DNA of 58,983 nt. Origin: a virus. The notes under the pieces are model-generated. The model saw nothing but the letters and a program-made list of their open reading frames with translations, made no database searches and was not told the origin of the DNA. Below, piece after piece: positions 10,475 to 47,543 of this stretch. A program made the translations under genes and the position numbers. Each line of letters begins with the position of its first letter. Positions within the stretch are counted from its first letter, which is position 1. The DNA lies in the IMG/VR virus record IMGVR_UViG_3300037193_001959, positions 1 to 58,983 of that record. One strand, written 5' to 3'.

Positions 10475-11178
10475 CGGTCGGTCACCTCCCCCCGCACGTC
10501 GGGGTCGAAGAGCGCGAGGGCGTCGTCGAGGTGCTCCTCGAAGCCGTCGTCGGTCGGCGCCGCGGCGACGGGGGATTCGTGCATGCTGAACGCAACCCCT
10601 CCCCCGATCGGCCGCGCCTCGAAGGTAGTTGGTGAGGTAGTTGCGGCCTGACCTGCGGAACTACCCCTGTCAGAAGGGGCTCCAAATCCGAGGGGAGGGG
10701 GCGACAGCACCGCCTCCAGATCAGCCCGATACACCCCCACCGACACCCGGCCCCCCACCTTGATGGAGTCGGCCACCCGCACCCCGAGCCGCTCCACCGC
10801 GGCGCGCAACTCGCTCACCCCCCACACAGCGAGGCGCTGCCGCGCATGGAGCGCGGCGAGGACGTCGGCGAGGAGCACGCCGTTGCGGCGGCCGATCGCG
10901 TCATCGAGGAGCGCGAGCAACTCGCCGTCGCCGATGCGCTGCCGCTCAAGGTCCCGGCCCGTACGCCACGCCGCGACGATCCACGCCGCGGCGGCCGGCC
11001 ACAGCAGACCCGGCGCCCGCTCGATGAGGGTGAACGTGAACCCGACGCCGACCAGCGTCCCCGCCACGCGGGCGGCAGCCGTACGCCACTCCCCGGCCGG
11101 TATCAGCCACGTCCAGCCGCGGCGGACCAAGGCGGCGGAGCCGTCGGCGAATCGGTGCAGGTGGCGGGCGCGCATCAC
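10471..11178 (-). CDS. Membrane-associated protein with winged-helix-like segment
   Basis: The product has 235 residues. A GTG start overlaps the upstream stop (GTGA). A hydrophobic stretch at about residues 35-70 (VAGTLVGVGFTFTLIERAPGLLWPAAAAWIVAAW) gives one or two membrane segments. The middle region (VWGVSELRAAVERLGVRV, then KVGGRVSVGVYRADLEAVL) looks like a small winged-helix module. The C-terminus is acidic and disordered. It is coupled to two polytopic membrane proteins. I see similar arrangements in Streptomyces plasmid and integrative-element modules; the function is unknown. Confidence 0.65.
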   Translation of the reverse strand: MMRARHLHRFADGSAALVRRGWTWLIPAGEWRTAAARVAGTLVGVGFTFTLIERAPGLLWPAAAAWIVAAWRTGRDLERQRIGDGELLALLDDAIGRRNGVLLADVLAALHARQRLAVWGVSELRAAVERLGVRVADSIKVGGRVSVGVYRADLEAVLSPPPLGFGAPSDRGSSAGQAATTSPTTFEARPIGGGVAFSMHESPVAAAPTDDGFEEHLDDALALFDPDVRGEVTDR

Positions 11179-14180: not shown

Positions 14181-14253
14181 GTGGTGTCTCCTTCAGGCGC
14201 CGGGCGCCTCCGTGTGGCCTGCCTCGTCAGGGCGGGTTGGCCGGGTCCCGCCG

Positions 14254-14269
14254 ACGCCCCGAAGGGCGT
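14254..14269 (-). terminator. ACGCCC-CGAA-GGGCGT hairpin
   Basis: A 6-bp perfect stem with a stable tetraloop lies just past the stop of the 14288-14503 gene on the minus strand. Short flanking pairings (GCCGA / TTCGGC) extend it. Confidence 0.5.
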
Positions 14270-14287
14270 TTCGGCTGCCTGCTTGAG

Positions 14288-37228: not shown

Positions 37229-38155
37229 ATGGGAGAGCACGCCGTGTACGACCTTCTTGTCGCGGCGATCCTGGGAGCCATCGCCGTACTCCTCGCCGGC
37301 GCCTACGCAGGGCTCTGGGTCATGCGCAGACGCTGGCTCGACACCCAAAAGCAACTGCAGCAGGAACGCGAGGAACGTCTACGCGCGGTGAACGAACTGC
37401 ACGTCATCATCGGCCGCGAACTGTTCGGCCGGAAACTCGCCGCGCTCGACGACGGTGATGACGACGACGAGCCGCCCGAGGAACGGCGGAAGCGTATCCG
37501 CGCCCTGCCGCCGCTCGCCGTACCCATCGCGGCACTCCTCGCCGCCGGCGCGTGGCTCCGCGCGCACCTCTGGGCACCCGCACGCGCGCACCCCTGGACG
37601 GCCGCCGGCAGCCTCGCCGCAGCGGCGGCCGTCGCCACACTCGTGTACGTCGTCGTGCCGGGCCCCGGCGGCATCCCGCAGCGCGCCGAGCCACCCATCA
37701 GCACCGTGCCCACCGCGCCAGCGTTACCGACAGGCAGCAGCCCTCCGACCACAGCCGACCCGGACCGTACGCCGCCCGCCGCGACATCCTCCGGCCACCC
37801 GGTCACCGCCGGCCGCCGCGGCTCCCCGGCCCCCAGCCCGAGCGCAACCACCCTGCCGCCGCCCGTCATGGCCGGTGACACCACCCCTCCCCCCGCCAGC
37901 AGCACCCCGGCGACGGCCGGAGGCACCGCCGCCGGCGGCACAACGGGCGGCGACGGAACCACCGGCGGAACGGGCAGCACGGGCGGGGCGACCGGCGGCG
38001 CCGACGGCGGCACCACCGGGGACACGACCACCGGCGGCACCACGCCGCCGACCGACCCCGACCCCCCCGACGAGCCGGGCGACAACCGCGACGGACTGCT
38101 GTGCCTGGACGTCGACGTCGCCCCCCTGCTGCGCCTCGGCCTATGCCTCCTGTGA
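37229..38155 (+). CDS. Membrane protein with Pro/Thr/Gly low-complexity tail
   Basis: The product has 308 residues. Hydrophobic segments are at residues 8-30 (LLVAAILGAIAVLLAGAYAG), about 95-110 and 122-144. A low-complexity tail (GTTGGDGTTGGTGSTGGATG and more) extends from there to near the C-terminus. The end LCLDVDVAPLLRLGLCLL is conserved-looking. It reads toward the integrase and overlaps its 3' end by 15 bp. Its place beside the repressor suggests a lysogenic-conversion or exclusion role, without direct evidence. The 37104-37228 leader is AT-richer than its surroundings, with TTAAGC repeats. Confidence 0.65.
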   Translation: MGEHAVYDLLVAAILGAIAVLLAGAYAGLWVMRRRWLDTQKQLQQEREERLRAVNELHVIIGRELFGRKLAALDDGDDDDEPPEERRKRIRALPPLAVPIAALLAAGAWLRAHLWAPARAHPWTAAGSLAAAAAVATLVYVVVPGPGGIPQRAEPPISTVPTAPALPTGSSPPTTADPDRTPPAATSSGHPVTAGRRGSPAPSPSATTLPPPVMAGDTTPPPASSTPATAGGTAAGGTTGGDGTTGGTGSTGGATGGADGGTTGDTTTGGTTPPTDPDPPDEPGDNRDGLLCLDVDVAPLLRLGLCLL

Positions 38156-39397
38156 GGCCACCGGCAGGGGCACGACGTTCCCGCCCGGGGCCGGCGGCGC
38201 CATCGCGTCCTCCACCGCGGTCACGATGTCGTCGTCGAGCCCGAGCACCAGGTGCCCGTACCGGTCCACCGTCGTCGTGATCGACTCGTGGCCCAGCCGC
38301 CGCTGGATCGCGGGCAGCGGGATCCGCGCGGCGATCAGCCACGAGACGTGGGTGTGCCGCAGGTCGTGGATCCTCGGCCTCTTGGTGAGGCCCTTCTCGA
38401 TGGCGCGTTCCACCGCGGGCACCCACTTGCGGTGGTGGAAGTTGGAGTGCGCCCACGCGTTGCCGTACGCGGTGCGGAACACGTGCGTCTCCGGCTTCTG
38501 CCCGGCCACGAGGCGCCGCGCGGTCGCGAGCTGCGTGGGCGTCAGCGTCAGCACCCGCCGGCTCGCGCGGGTCTTCGGGGGCCCGAGGAAGTAGGCGCGG
38601 GGTGCGCCCTTCTCGGCGCGTTTCCACGCCCGCTGCACGGACACGGTGCCGCGGGCGAAGTTGATGTCCCTCGTTTGCAGGGCGGCTGCCTCACCGAAGC
38701 GCATGCCGGTGCTGACGAGCCAGTCGGCGAGGTCCCGGGCGCCGGGGTCGGTGATCTCGTCGGCGACGCGCGAGTACTCGTCGTGTTCGAGGAACGTCAT
38801 TTCCTCGTCGATGTGGTCGTCGGTCCGGGGCAGCTTGGTGCCCCGGCAGGGGTTGTCGGCGCGCAGCGGCGGGGTGCGGTCGACGGAGGCGTGGACGATG
38901 CAGTACAGCAGGCCGTGCCGGTTGCGGATGCTCTTCGGGCTGGCTGCCTTGACGAGCCACTGTTCGGGGTCGCGGGGGTCGCGCTTCCCGTCTTCCTGGA
39001 GGCGTACCCACCGGCGGATGTCCTCGCTGGTGATGTTGCAGATGGTCGCAGGCACGGTGCGGCCGTGCGGCGTGACGTGCTTGATCAGGGATATGTGCCG
39101 CTGGACGTCGCGGAGGTAGTCGCCGCGGGTGCGCTTGTCGACGCCGGTCAGGTCCTCGACGTACTTCTCAGCCCACGCGATCAGGGGCATGTCGTCCGGG
39201 TGTTCGGGGTCCTCGACGAAGCCGCGCCCGCGGACCCAGCCGGGGGGCCACTTGTTGCCGTGGGCGTCGACGATGCGCTTGAACTCCGTCGCGCTGTCCT
39301 CGTCGGCGAAGTTCTCGGTCTGCCAGCCGTCCTGGCGCCATTTGACCTGGTAGGTGATCTCTCCGTCCTTCTTGGGACGGGGCACGATGCTCGCCAT
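38141..39397 (-). CDS. int: Tyrosine-type phage integrase
   Basis: The product has 418 residues. The N-terminal arm-binding part has a KWRQDGWQTENFADEDSATE motif. A SAM-like core-binding domain spans about residues 70-175. The catalytic domain has TGMRFGEAAAL (Arg233), PKTRASRR (Lys275), HDLRHTHVSW (His344, Arg347), RLGHESITTT (His370) and VDRYGH (Tyr380). All active-site residues are present. It reads away from the attP region at 39467-39534, giving the usual int-attP arrangement. Confidence 0.93.
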   Translation of the reverse strand: MASIVPRPKKDGEITYQVKWRQDGWQTENFADEDSATEFKRIVDAHGNKWPPGWVRGRGFVEDPEHPDDMPLIAWAEKYVEDLTGVDKRTRGDYLRDVQRHISLIKHVTPHGRTVPATICNITSEDIRRWVRLQEDGKRDPRDPEQWLVKAASPKSIRNRHGLLYCIVHASVDRTPPLRADNPCRGTKLPRTDDHIDEEMTFLEHDEYSRVADEITDPGARDLADWLVSTGMRFGEAAALQTRDINFARGTVSVQRAWKRAEKGAPRAYFLGPPKTRASRRVLTLTPTQLATARRLVAGQKPETHVFRTAYGNAWAHSNFHHRKWVPAVERAIEKGLTKRPRIHDLRHTHVSWLIAARIPLPAIQRRLGHESITTTVDRYGHLVLGLDDDIVTAVEDAMAPPAPGGNVVPLPVASQEA

Positions 39398-42604: not shown

Positions 42605-43825
42605 TCAGACGAGGCCGAGCGTGCCACCCAGATCACGGATGTCGTCGGCGATGGCGAGCGGCGGGTCCGCCAACATCTCCGCGATCATCGATCGGGCAAA
42701 AAGGGAGAACTCGAAGGTGTCGTACGAGCGCTCGCGAGCCTTCAGCATGTGGAAAACAGCCGCGTCTTGCTCGTGCAGTTGGTAGTGGGCGCGGGCCACT
42801 TCGACGAGGTAGCGCGACTGGCGAGTCCGAGAATCGATCGACGCCGGGGAGATACGCCGCGCGGCATCGAGTGCCCGGCGCGGCTGCTGCAAGTCGAGGT
42901 GCATCGTGACGGCGTAGTGCTCCACCATGCCCGTGCCGATCATCAGCCACGGGTGGCTGTACCCGCCGAGCTTGCTGGCGGCGCGGTGCGCTTCGTCGTG
43001 GTGATGCCACGCCTCCCCGGACCGGCCGGTCTTGGCGTGGGAGAGCGCCACCGCCAGGTGCATCAGGGCGTGCAGCGCCCGCTGCTCGGTGGAGTCGCTG
43101 GGCCGGAGCATCTCGGCGACGTCGAGGGCAAGTTCGACGCGGGCCTCTGCGGCTTCTCCGGCGTCGCGCCAGACGTGGTTGGCGTACCAGGCGGCTCCGG
43201 CGATGGCGGCGGGGTCGTCTGCGTCTTGGGCGGTGAGCATGGCCCGGTCCGACGCCATGTACACCATCTCCGGCGCGGGCTGGAACGAGCCGTACAACTG
43301 CACCAGGTGGTAGACGCGTGCGAGTTGCGCGGCGAACCGGCGGCGGTGGGTGCGGTCCTCGGCGGCGTGCTGGGAGGCGCGACCGTCGGCGATGAGGCGC
43401 GGCAGCATCGGCGCGATGGCGGCACGCTCATGCTGCGAGGTGTGCCACGCCCGCCACGCGCCGTCGATACGCGTCGTGTAGTCCTCGACAGCCACCGGGG
43501 ATCCTTGGGTGACCCAGTACGACACCAGGGCGTCACGGACAGTCGTGAGGGAGGGGTGGGAGGTCTTGGAGTAGGTGCTCCGCGCAAGCCGGGCATCCCC
43601 GGTGAGTTCGGCCAGATCCTCCACGCCGAGGGCTTCGGCAAGCCTGAGCAGCATCTGGATACGGGGCATGCGAAGCCTGTTCCTCTCGATCGCTTTGACC
43701 CAGTCCGGGCCGCGGCCTACGAGCCCGCCGAGGACTGGCCGAGTGAGGCCCTTGGACTCCCGGGCGGCTTGCACTCTTTCCCCGAACGTCCTTGCAGCCG
43801 GGGGGGTATCATTTGGAGACGTCAC
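42605..43825 (-). CDS. Streptomyces-type HTH regulator with helical-repeat C-domain
   Basis: The product has 406 residues from a GTG. An XRE helix-turn-helix (FGERVQAARESKGLTRPVLG, then DWVKAIERNRLRMPRIQMLL) opens the protein. The rest is about 330 residues of helical, TPR-like repeats rich in Ala, His and Arg. Such large regulators abound in Streptomyces. It may sense a ligand or partner and control the nearby small genes. The gene lies between two inverted-repeat elements (42558-42603 and 43826-43876). Confidence 0.75.
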   Translation of the reverse strand: MTSPNDTPPAARTFGERVQAARESKGLTRPVLGGLVGRGPDWVKAIERNRLRMPRIQMLLRLAEALGVEDLAELTGDARLARSTYSKTSHPSLTTVRDALVSYWVTQGSPVAVEDYTTRIDGAWRAWHTSQHERAAIAPMLPRLIADGRASQHAAEDRTHRRRFAAQLARVYHLVQLYGSFQPAPEMVYMASDRAMLTAQDADDPAAIAGAAWYANHVWRDAGEAAEARVELALDVAEMLRPSDSTEQRALHALMHLAVALSHAKTGRSGEAWHHHDEAHRAASKLGGYSHPWLMIGTGMVEHYAVTMHLDLQQPRRALDAARRISPASIDSRTRQSRYLVEVARAHYQLHEQDAAVFHMLKARERSYDTFEFSLFARSMIAEMLADPPLAIADDIRDLGGTLGLV

Positions 43826-43876
43826 GGCCTTACCTCTTCTCTGCAACTTGACACTGCCAGGGTAAGAGGTAGGGCC
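43826..43876. promoter_or_regulatory. Inverted repeat at the start of the large regulator gene
   Basis: GGCCTTACCTCTT (43826-43838) and AAGAGGTAGGGCC (43864-43876) pair at 12 of 13 positions around a 25-bp centre, immediately before the GTG. It could be an autoregulatory operator or a leader hairpin masking the ribosome binding site AGAGG. Confidence 0.6.
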
Positions 43877-43963
43877 GGTTCTGTGTGAGGTCGACCACAA
43901 ACCATGAGGCGACTGGGACGCACGAACGAGCGGGGGCGTCGGGCGTGACCTCCGCACAGCACG

Positions 43964-43989
43964 ACGCCCCCTCCCGAAGGAGGGGGCGT
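43964..43989. terminator. Perfect hairpin with CGAA loop
   Basis: ACGCCCCCTCC and GGAGGGGGCGT form a perfect 11-bp stem and tetraloop in the gap between the metalloprotease and the large regulator. It should block read-through from either side. The remaining 43990-44233 holds a short GGCCC/GGGCC hairpin near 44026 and nothing else I recognise. Confidence 0.75.
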
Positions 43990-44233
43990 TGCGTGTCTCC
44001 GGGGGCCTCTACCCCGCCTCGATGATAGGCCCCTGATCGGGCCGTCGATGGCGGGAGGGATGCGGTTGCCCGCGCCCGGCTGATCCCGGCAGAACGATGC
44101 CCGGCGGGCCGCGGTCGGAACCCCGTGGGAACCGTCCCGCCAGGCAGTGCGGCAGGTAACTCCAACCTCGGGAGACGGGCCGCGCCGCGACGACCCGCAC
44201 CACCAGCGTAGCCGCCGCCACCGACCGCGCGCC

Positions 44234-44977
44234 CTACCGCAGGTCGTAGTTCTTCCGCATCTGCCGCAGCCCCGGCACGTCGAACTCGCTCGTGTACTTC
44301 CCACCGCTCGCCTTGCTCAAGTACCCGCCCGACGGCGCGCACATCACCGGCCGCCGCCCCGCCGAGTTCCGTACACACTCGTTGCTCTCGACGCGCCCGT
44401 CGCGGTCCCGGTCGTAGTTGACGTGCGCCAAACCGAGAATGTGCCCGAGTTCGTGCAAGATCCCATTGCGGCGCATCTGCTCGTTCGTCGTCGCGTTGTC
44501 CGAGAACCAGTTACTGCGCGACCAGTACTCCGAGTCGATGACCACGACGCCGCCGTACGCCGAGCCGTTCGCGGTGGCCGCGCACGGGTACGCCACCGAG
44601 GCGCCCCACGTGCCGACCGGTCGCCACTTCATGTGGAACGTGATCTCGTGCCGAGGCTGCGACGCGCACGACGGCCGCGCTCCGGGATTCAGCGTCGACG
44701 ACACGGTGACCTTGACGCCCGTCTCGTCGGTGATCTGCGCGGCGCCCCGCGTCAGGGCGGGCGTGAGCCGGTCCCGGGCGGTCGACGACGCGAAGCGTAT
44801 GACGTACGGGTCCGGGCTGATCGAGTAGATGCCGGCGCTCGTGAGGGCCTTCCAACCCTTCCCCGAGTACACCGGCCCGTCCGCTGCATGCGCCGACGGC
44901 GCCAGCAGCGCCCCGCCTGCGACGGCGCTGGCCGCAGCAGCGATCAGGGCCGACCGTGCAGCTCGCGTTCCTCGCAT
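44234..44977 (-). CDS. Secreted zinc metalloprotease (metzincin-like)
   Basis: The product has 247 residues. A signal peptide of about 31 residues ends SAHA-ADG. The mature protein has NGILHELGHILGLAHVNYDR with His175, Glu176, His179 and His185 in a HExxHxxGxxH zinc site. Several Cys (SCAS, YPCAA, NECV, VMCAP) could form disulfides. The motif is that of metzincins and is close in form to small neutral proteases of Streptomyces. It has its own promoter and a terminator region, so it is best seen as a lysogenic-conversion gene (moron) released by the host cell. Confidence 0.85.
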   Translation of the reverse strand: MRGTRAARSALIAAAASAVAGGALLAPSAHAADGPVYSGKGWKALTSAGIYSISPDPYVIRFASSTARDRLTPALTRGAAQITDETGVKVTVSSTLNPGARPSCASQPRHEITFHMKWRPVGTWGASVAYPCAATANGSAYGGVVVIDSEYWSRSNWFSDNATTNEQMRRNGILHELGHILGLAHVNYDRDRDGRVESNECVRNSAGRRPVMCAPSGGYLSKASGGKYTSEFDVPGLRQMRKNYDLR

Positions 44978-45025
44978 GTGCCCCCTCCTTCGTCTCCCCG
45001 CCGCACGGCGGGGCCTACGCCTTCC

Positions 45026-45054
45026 AATTTGGCCAATAGACTTGGCGTTGTCAA
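45026..45054 (-). promoter_or_regulatory. Promoter for the metalloprotease with conserved core shared with 14.9 kb
   Basis: On the minus strand TTGACA (45054-45049) is 17 bp from CAAATT (45031-45026). AAGTC and ATTGGCC lie in the spacer at exactly the positions seen at 14924-14953. TTGGCCAA occurs at 45029-45036 and 45060-45067. On the plus strand TAAATT (45078-45083) lies six bases before the ATG at 45090, suggesting a leaderless divergent transcript. Confidence 0.75.
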
Positions 45055-45089
45055 TTCATTTGGCCAAGTGACTTTGCTAAATTGGTGAC

Positions 45090-45308
45090 ATGATGTTGCC
45101 CATGGACACCGCGAAGCTGGAGGCCGCCGCCGCGCGCTACCGCGCCGCCATCGCCGAACTGGAGGCCGCCCGCGCCGAACTCCAGGCCGAAGCCGTCGCC
45201 GCCCTCCGGCAGGAAGGCAAACGCGGCGATCAGGCAGAGGTCGCCCGCATCACCGGGTGGACACGCGAACAGATCCGGCTGATCAAGAAGGCCGCCGACG
45301 AAGCCTGA
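45090..45308 (+). CDS. Small HTH protein, copy 2 of the duplicated divergent module
   Basis: The product has 72 residues (68 if the ATG at 45102 is used). A long Ala/Glu-rich helix (MDTAKLEAAAARYRAAIAEL) leads into a C-terminal helix-turn-helix, AEVARITGWTREQIRLIKKA. That end resembles the 15001-15216 product. It is divergent from the metalloprotease and probably controls it. Confidence 0.7.
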   Translation: MMLPMDTAKLEAAAARYRAAIAELEAARAELQAEAVAALRQEGKRGDQAEVARITGWTREQIRLIKKAADEA

Positions 45309-46359: not shown

Positions 46360-46665
46360 TCAGAGCTTGTCGGAGGGCGGCACCGACTCCACGCGCGGCC
46401 CGGCCGCAGCCAGCGCCTGCTCCGGCGGCCGAGCCCAGCCGAGGAGTACCCCCGCGAGCGTCCGCAGCGTGGCGTTCCCCGCCTTGTCGGCGTACTCCTC
46501 GACCACGCGAAACACGGTGTAGTACGCGGCGGAGACGACGCCCATGAGGAGCGCCGTCGCCCCGCCGGAGTCGACGTTGACGCCGAGGACGTCGGCGCCG
46601 GCGACGATGTAGCCGACGGCGAGCGGCACGACGGTCCGCATCCAGTTCATGAAGATCGAGTACAT
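46360..46665 (-). CDS. Holin
   Basis: The product has 101 residues. Two or three membrane segments are visible (RTVVPLAVGYIVAGADVLG, ATALLMGVVSAAYYTVFRVV and TLRTLAGVLLGW), followed by a short polar tail. It follows the endolysin by two bases. This matches Streptomyces phage holins, which open the membrane for the lysin. Confidence 0.75.
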   Translation of the reverse strand: MYSIFMNWMRTVVPLAVGYIVAGADVLGVNVDSGGATALLMGVVSAAYYTVFRVVEEYADKAGNATLRTLAGVLLGWARPPEQALAAAGPRVESVPPSDKL

Positions 46666-46667
46666 GG

Positions 46668-47543
46668 TCAGTTCTCCTCTACGGCCAGGCGCACGGTGAC
46701 GCCTTCGATCGCCTCGCGGATCTCCCGCTTCAGCGCCTCCAGATCGGCGCCCGGGCCGGCGGCCACCGCGTCGACGAGCTTGTTGATCGTGACCTGCTGA
46801 GCGGCGAGCTGCGCCTCGATGCGCTTCGTCACGAGGTACGTGTTCCGCTGGTACGTGCCGCCTGCCCAGTGCGTGTTCTCGGAGCCTTCGGTCGGGGCGG
46901 CGAGCGGCTTGAGGTTGTCCTTCGTCCACACCCGCTCTGCGATCTTCTCGATGTCCTCGGGGGTCACTTCGTCTTCCTCCTTCGCAGTGCCGGCCGCCCA
47001 CGCGCGCATCGCCGCGCGCGTCGGGAAGTCAGCGACGTTGATGTCCAGCGGCGTGCTGGTGTACTGGTGGATCAGCCACTTCGCGCGGATACTCGGGTCG
47101 CCCGGCCGGCCGTTGTACTGCGCGATCCACAGCCCGTCGCCCGCGTACGAGGAGCGGTCGCGGTTCACCCAGAAGTCGACGTTGCAGTACAGCAGCACCT
47201 TGTGATCGGGCCGCAGCCGCTTCACCTCGCGCAGGAACTCGTCCTTCTCCGCACTCGACGCCGCGGTGCCCGAGCTGGTGTGCTCCCAGTCGCACGCGAG
47301 GATGTCCCCTGGCCGGCTCGCGCACTTCTCCACGAAGTACGCGGCCTGCGCCTTGATGTTCCCCGGCCACAGGAAGTGGTAGAAGCCCAGCACGAGCCCG
47401 GCCGCCCGGGCGCGCGCGGCCTGCCCGCTCTGCTTCGGGTTGATGTACGTACGGCCTTCGGTCACCTTCACGATCACAAAGTCGTAGCCGCCGGTCGGGT
47501 AGTCGCTCGGCTGGTAGGCGGAGACGTCGATGCCCTTGATCAC
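46668..47543 (-). CDS. Endolysin, GH25 muramidase
   Basis: The product has 291 residues. A glycoside hydrolase 25 domain covers residues 1-195: KGIDVSAYQ (Asp6), DFVIVKVTEG (Glu29), LGFYHFLWPG, ILACDWEHTS (Asp85, Glu87) and LWIAQYNGRPG. There is no signal peptide, so it needs the holin. The C-terminal 90 residues are helical and coiled-coil-like and may aid cell-wall binding or oligomerisation. It cuts the glycan backbone of peptidoglycan. Confidence 0.9.
   Translation of the reverse strand: MIKGIDVSAYQPSDYPTGGYDFVIVKVTEGRTYINPKQSGQAARARAAGLVLGFYHFLWPGNIKAQAAYFVEKCASRPGDILACDWEHTSSGTAASSAEKDEFLREVKRLRPDHKVLLYCNVDFWVNRDRSSYAGDGLWIAQYNGRPGDPSIRAKWLIHQYTSTPLDINVADFPTRAAMRAWAAGTAKEEDEVTPEDIEKIAERVWTKDNLKPLAAPTEGSENTHWAGGTYQRNTYLVTKRIEAQLAAQQVTINKLVDAVAAGPGADLEALKREIREAIEGVTVRLAVEEN

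What the first reader, a model, noticed from the sequence alone, without database searches (positions are those of the whole stretch)
44234..44977. Phage-borne secreted metzincin-like protease
An intact HExxHxxGxxH site follows a clear signal peptide, with its own promoter and flanking terminators at the edge of the late region. This is what a lysogenic-conversion gene looks like. A secreted protease could alter the host's surroundings or its surface.
Basis: partly seen in the sequence, partly recalled or inferred. Interest (0 to 1): 0.6.

Follow-up and report, generated by a model that had tools for sequence, protein, structure and literature searches.

The report
Streptomyces phage-borne secreted metzincin protease
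A temperate Streptomyces phage carries a gene for a secreted zinc protease of an uncatalogued metzincin family; relatives of the gene turn up in several unrelated Streptomyces phages and plasmid-like prophages, in this phage beside its own small regulator, so it looks like an accessory gene that changes what infected bacteria release, although no activity has been measured.

Summary
The gene is real and placed as stated: 247 aa, a Sec-type signal peptide ending AHA|AD, HELGHILGLAH and a Met-turn (PVMC). An AlphaFold2 model has a metzincin fold (best match MMP-8, Z 11.6). It reaches no Pfam or NCBIfam cut-off and is not snapalysin: its third zinc ligand is His, not Asp. Its family is confined, as far as sampled, to Streptomyces and close kin. 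It sits in five phage contexts, on 14 plasmids that all carry a phage tape-measure gene, and as chromosomal genes, one branch fused to a ricin lectin. The catalytic motif is invariant in 48 of 48 aligned members. In the window it lies after the lysis genes and before the regulator and integrase, facing a divergent small HTH-like gene across a repeat-rich region; three close relatives keep this plan with a different regulator and operator. No consensus promoter was found and only one terminator-like hairpin flanks the gene. Lysogenic conversion is plausible and moderately favoured; a lysis-aiding role, like the Listeria prophage metzincin Mtz, is a serious rival. No activity or expression was tested. 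New variant of a known kind: a phage accessory gene for a secreted protease.

The parts
44234..44977 (-). secreted metzincin-like metalloprotease CDS, 247 aa
   Evidence: relatives; fold
44885..44977 (-). Sec-type signal peptide, residues 1-31, AHA|AD cleavage
   Evidence: read by eye; same plan in L001, L015, L016, L017
44423..44455 (-). zinc site HELGHILGLAH (residues 175-185)
   Evidence: H/E/H/G/H invariant in 48 of 48
44378..44413 (-). EF-hand-like loop DRDRDGRVESNE (residues 189-200), probable Ca site
   Evidence: D189, D193, G194, E200 invariant in the 18 sequences; whole loop deleted in one phage-plasmid clade
44339..44350 (-). Met-turn PVMC (residues 210-213)
   Evidence: Met in 40 of 48, Leu in 7, Glu in 1
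44981..44988 (-). Shine-Dalgarno GGAGGGGG
44996..45013 (-). 5' UTR hairpin CCCCGCC-GTGC-GGCGGGG
   Evidence: z -1.1, weak
45027..45036 (.). operator-like repeat ATTTGGCCAA, copy 1
   Evidence: 2 copies in the window, 0.01 expected
45058..45067 (.). operator-like repeat ATTTGGCCAA, copy 2
   Evidence: similar repeats upstream of three homologues of the regulator
45049..45054 (-). TTGACA, candidate -35 of the protease promoter
   Evidence: sequence; no good -10; scan negative
45090..45308 (+). divergent small HTH-like regulator gene (72 aa; conserved part begins at Met5, 45102)
   Evidence: 3 phage homologues, 67-74% identical; AF2 long helix plus two C-terminal helices, pLDDT 85; no Pfam match above cut-off
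43964..43989 (.). terminator-like hairpin downstream of the protease, no T-run
46360..47543 (-). lysis cassette upstream: GH25-type endolysin 46668-47543 and probable holin 46360-46665
   Evidence: endolysin by PHROGs; holin by position only
42605..43957 (-). phage transcriptional regulator downstream of the protease
   Evidence: phrog_5823, E 4e-77
38141..39397 (-). tyrosine integrase
   Evidence: phrog_1, E 3e-52

Best explanation
An accessory (moron-type) gene of temperate Streptomyces phages that makes a secreted zinc endopeptidase of an uncatalogued metzincin family. Shown by computation: signal peptide, invariant zinc site, metzincin fold, two likely disulfides (C104-C132, C201-C213), an EF-hand-like loop, repeated acquisition by unrelated phages, and in the window-type phages a divergent small regulator with repeated operators. 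Inferred: the regulator represses protease and itself; on derepression the prophage-bearing mycelium exports the enzyme by Sec, Zn and probably Ca bind outside the cell, and it cleaves extracellular or surface proteins (nutrient release, matrix or surface change). This is lysogenic conversion in the broad sense: a host-facing secreted activity not tied to virion assembly. The substrate is unknown.
For: Motif and signal peptide, 48 of 48 conservation, fold. Accessory: all 14 plasmids with the gene are among the 45 of 72,556 plasmids with a pSAM1-type tape-measure gene, so 14 of 45 have it; of 60 Streptomyces genomes with a homologue of this phage's tail protein only the two with the near-identical phage have the protease beside it. 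Repeated gain: phage, phage-plasmid and chromosomal labels need 8 changes on the tree (minimum 3). Own regulation: divergent small regulator plus operators in window, L001, L015 and L016, with three different operator sequences among the four (ATTTGGCCAA x2; GTGGTTRACCAC x2; TGTAGCTACA x5). On pSAM1 the gene lies about 41 kb from the amidase. Chromosomal relatives stand alone away from phage genes.
Against: No expression or activity data. In all integrative phages but L024/L029/L030 the gene adjoins the lysis end, and in L017 its stop overlaps the endolysin start (ATGA), which suits a late, lysis-timed role. The regulator's target was not tested, and its homologue in the protease phage L034 does not face the protease. 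One phage-plasmid clade lacks a visible signal peptide.
Confidence: 0.5

Rival explanations
1. Lysis or egress aid: made late with endolysin and holin, the secreted metzincin conditions the cell envelope or mycelial matrix so that lysis and virion release go faster.
For: Placed after endolysin/holin in the window, L001, L015, L016, L033 and L034, and immediately before the amidase endolysin in L017 with an ATGA overlap. The Listeria prophage metzincin Mtz is an accessory gene downstream of holin-lysin and, with Tim, sensitises cells to lysis (PMC8235301).
Against: Phage-plasmid copies, the majority, lie apart from lysis genes where checked (pSAM1: 41 kb). Window-type phages give it a separate regulator and operators. 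No lipoprotein partner within 3 called genes in 28 loci.
Confidence: 0.3
2. Superinfection exclusion: the protease trims a host surface protein used by competing phages as receptor.
For: Secreted, prophage-borne, accessory.
Against: No positive evidence; receptor proteins for these phages are unknown, and free chromosomal relatives argue for a general exoenzyme.
Confidence: 0.1
3. A passively carried chromosomal exoprotease gene without benefit to the phage.
For: Chromosomal relatives exist in Streptomyces.
Against: Catalytic residues invariant, dN/dS below 1, several independent captures, dedicated regulators.
Confidence: 0.07

Closest known systems
Listeria monocytogenes phage-origin metzincin Mtz (LMRG_00713) with Tim (PMC8235301)
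   Same: secreted metzincin with HExxHxxGxxH/D and Met-turn, accessory prophage gene downstream of holin-lysin, own regulatory input
   Different: has a partner lipoprotein Tim, absent near this gene; kinship in sequence was not compared; different host phylum
Snapalysin (peptidase M7, Streptomyces)
   Same: small secreted Streptomyces metzincin; Foldseek match 4hx3, TM 0.61 by target length
   Different: third zinc ligand Asp instead of His (from established knowledge of the family); no Pfam M7 match at E 1; 11% identity over the structural alignment
Matrixins (M10: MMP-8, MMP-12, MMP-13, karilysin)
   Same: best structural matches, Z 10.6-11.6, rmsd about 3 A over about 145 residues; HExxHxxGxxH
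   Different: 18% identity or so; below the Pfam cut-off (17.9 against 24 bits); no cysteine-switch propeptide; extra EF-hand-like loop and two likely disulfides
DUF3152 (PF11350), secreted actinobacterial family
   Same: HExGHxxGxxHxxC...PVM layout; two family members match it, best E 2.4e-4
   Different: profile comparison only 73% probability over 52 columns; the window protein itself does not match
Streptomyces chromosomal relatives, including the ricin-B-lectin fusion branch (L053-L064)
   Same: same domain with the invariant zinc site
   Different: not on phages; the distant branch adds a C-terminal ricin-type beta-trefoil

Membership tests
metzincin clan | HExxHxxGxxH/D zinc motif | tested here: met
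   HELGHILGLAH; H/E/H/G/H invariant in 48 of 48
metzincin clan | Met-turn after the active-site helix | tested here: met
   PVMC in the window protein; Leu or Glu in 8 of 48 members
metzincin clan | metzincin catalytic fold | tested here: met
   AF2 pLDDT 80, pTM 0.77; the 50 best VIA rows are nearly all matrixin catalytic domains, top Z 11.6
metzincin clan | zinc-dependent peptidase activity | not testable with these tools
   needs purified protein
snapalysin (M7) | HExxHxxGxxD, Asp as third ligand | tested here: not met
   third ligand is His185, His in all 48 members
snapalysin (M7) | match to the family profile | tested here: not met
   no M7 model among matches up to E 1
matrixin (M10) | Pfam Peptidase_M10 above gathering score | tested here: not met
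   17.9 against 24 bits
matrixin (M10) | cysteine-switch propeptide PRCGxPD | tested here: not met
   absent from the 247-aa sequence
astacin (M12A) | Pfam Astacin above gathering score | tested here: not met
   14.1 against 22.5 bits
Mtz-Tim phage pair | neighbouring Tim-like lipoprotein gene | tested here: not met
   no lipobox protein within 3 called genes in 28 loci (simple pattern)
Mtz-Tim phage pair | sequence homology to Mtz | not tested
   Mtz sequence was not fetched; no relative of the window protein in 50,697 phage records by tblastn
lysogenic-conversion (moron) gene | accessory gene of a temperate phage | tested here: met
   integrase and regulator present; 14 of 45 phage-plasmids have it
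lysogenic-conversion (moron) gene | own transcription unit | tested here: inconclusive
   divergent regulator, operator-like repeats and downstream hairpin, but no consensus promoter
lysogenic-conversion (moron) gene | expressed in lysogens and changes the host | not testable with these tools
   needs lysogen and deletion strains

The most novel reading that the evidence does not exclude
Streptomyces temperate phages have repeatedly captured a genus-restricted secreted metzincin and placed it under interchangeable small repressor-operator cassettes, so that prophages control a public exoprotease of the mycelial colony, either to feed or disperse the lysogen or to prepare the mycelium for virion spread.
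Probability: 0.3. Interest if true: 0.65.

Novelty: new variant of a known kind. Interest (0 to 1): 0.45.

Why it matters
Host-facing functions of Streptomyces prophages are little studied, and two papers on Streptomyces or actinobacterial prophages checked here mention no such protease (PMC11302927, PMC10023795). A secreted protease carried by about a third of one phage-plasmid group would be a concrete, easily assayed trait by which prophages shape exoenzyme output, and the comparison with Listeria Mtz makes 'lysogen trait or lysis aid' directly testable.

Tried and rejected
Snapalysin membership: rejected (third ligand, no profile match). Known phage family: PHROGs gave no match and the INPHARED phage records no DNA or protein match. 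A 14-sequence alignment was too diverse for the collection scan, so 5 closer sequences were used. Dagobah, the nearest isolate by capsid (52%), carries no annotated protease of this kind and its architecture differs. A link between the protease and the downstream RNA-like element was dropped, since the element also occurs in phages with no protease detected in the stretch held (L110, L113). A Tim-like partner was looked for and not found. Covariation for the RNA element was uninformative (0 of 29 pairs with two-sided change).

Full report
What is there. The ORF at 44234-44977 on the minus strand encodes 247 aa with a plain Sec-type signal peptide, the motif HELGHILGLAH and a PVMC Met-turn. The window is an IMG/VR virus record. 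PHROGs identifies terminase, portal, major head protein, endolysin, a collagen-like tail fibre, a transcriptional regulator and a tyrosine integrase, so this is a temperate tailed phage. The order along the minus strand is terminase, portal, head, tail (across the record ends), endolysin, probable holin, collagen-like protein, protease, regulator, integrase: the protease sits at the junction of late and lysogeny modules.

Is it a protease of a known family? No curated model reaches its cut-off, but nearly all the weak matches are metzincins. An AlphaFold2 model from 18 relatives has pLDDT 80 and pTM 0.77, with low confidence for residues 1-49. Its best structural matches are matrixin catalytic domains, Z 11.6 to MMP-8 over 146 residues, and snapalysin is also found. 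In 48 aligned relatives the residues H175, E176, H179, G182 and H185 are invariant, Met212 is Met in 40, and the cysteines C201 and C213 are present in 44. After the zinc site comes DRDRDGRVESNE, an EF-hand-like loop; in one phage-plasmid clade it is cleanly deleted. The call is therefore a metzincin of its own family, not snapalysin (third ligand His, no M7 match), not matrixin or astacin by their defining tests.

Where else is it? In viral contigs and Streptomyces genomes there are close relatives. Of 72,556 plasmids, 14 carry a relative, all Streptomyces elements of 87-94 kb; all 14 are among the 45 plasmids that carry a homologue of the pSAM1 tape-measure protein, so they are phage-plasmids, and the gene is optional in them. 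pSAM1 is described as holding a prophage-like sequence (PMC11302927). Of 393 sampled Streptomyces genomes 38 have a match, including stand-alone chromosomal genes and a distant branch fused to a ricin-B lectin. In a class-wide sample 4 of 395 genomes match. On the tree, phage, phage-plasmid and chromosomal members interleave (8 changes, minimum 3), which indicates repeated movement. dN/dS of 0.31-0.56 is rough (NG86, GC-rich genes) but below 1 in every pair tried.

Contexts. Five phage settings were seen: the window type (window, L001, L015, L016) after the lysis cassette; L017, directly before an amidase endolysin with overlapping ATGA; L033/L034/L041, at the lysis end; L024/L029/L030, upstream of terminase and portal where the contig shows them; and phage-plasmids, in an accessory region (pSAM1: 41 kb from the amidase). 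Among 60 Streptomyces genomes with a homologue of the window phage's tail protein, the close protease lies beside it only in the two with 85-88% identical tails.

Regulation. Between the protease and a divergent 72-aa ORF lie two exact ATTTGGCCAA repeats, the only ones in the window (0.01 expected), around a TTGACA. The ORF has three phage-borne homologues, 67-74% identical, each preceded by similar CTTGGC-rich repeats around TTGTCAA, and a model with a long helix and two C-terminal helices; no Pfam family matches above cut-off. L001 and L015 have a different small divergent protein and two GTGGTTRACCAC palindromes with a possible promoter TTGACC-N17-CATATT; L016 has five TGTAGCTACA palindromes and a relative of that protein. 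I read these as ribbon-helix-helix-like repressors from the sequence only; Pfam is silent. The conserved plan with changing parts suggests the protease is governed by its own repressor. Repression itself is inferred.

How it probably works. A prophage-coded, regulated, secreted endopeptidase acting outside the mycelium. I favour a lysogen-facing role (about 0.5) because of dedicated regulation, the accessory distribution and phage-plasmid placement away from lysis genes. The main rival (about 0.3) is a lysis aid, suggested by the lysis-adjacent placement in most integrative phages and by the Listeria prophage metzincin Mtz, which sits downstream of holin-lysin and sensitises cells to lysis (PMC8235301). 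No Tim-like lipoprotein was found near the gene, so it is not an Mtz-Tim pair.

Limits. Gene calls in fetched loci are from a simple codon-position script. Signal peptides were read by eye. Genome samples are partial. No expression, activity or structure was measured.

Noticed in passing
window 43990-44233 (-): A 233-nt noncoding stretch after the protease is 94-95% identical in L001 and L016 although the proteins are about 70% identical; its core also recurs after the protease in pSAM1 and in L017, L110 and L113, the last two with no protease detected in the stretch held. Candidate structured phage RNA, no Rfam match up to E 1 for the window copy.
   Followed up: partly
window 14213-14276 (-): Type II hammerhead ribozyme, Rfam RF02276, 40.3 bits against a gathering score of 37.
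   Followed up: no
L008 2860-3618, L009 2893-3627, L012 2875-3618, L039 1501-2235: A phage-plasmid clade of the protease has no visible signal peptide and has lost Cys104, Cys201 and Cys213 together, as if it stays inside the cell.
   Followed up: partly
L018, L020, L022, L026, L027, L028 upstream of the protease: Start codon directly preceded by a near-identical CCAGACTGAAGGGC leader in phage-plasmid copies, possibly a hairpin or binding site.
   Followed up: no
L007 3744-3823 and L020 about 10770-10855: tRNA-like sequence just downstream of the protease on two phage-plasmids, behind a TGTCAGTG-type promoter-like sequence (Rfam tRNA in L040).
   Followed up: no
L003 6281-7327, L005 14544-15593: Type III polyketide synthase-like genes (annotated polyketide synthase, PhlD) near the protease on phage-plasmids; plasmid prophages with type III PKS are noted in PMC10023795.
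   Followed up: no
L041 1498-2217 (-): A phage copy with Glu at the Met-turn position (PVECAP) although the zinc ligands are intact.
   Followed up: no
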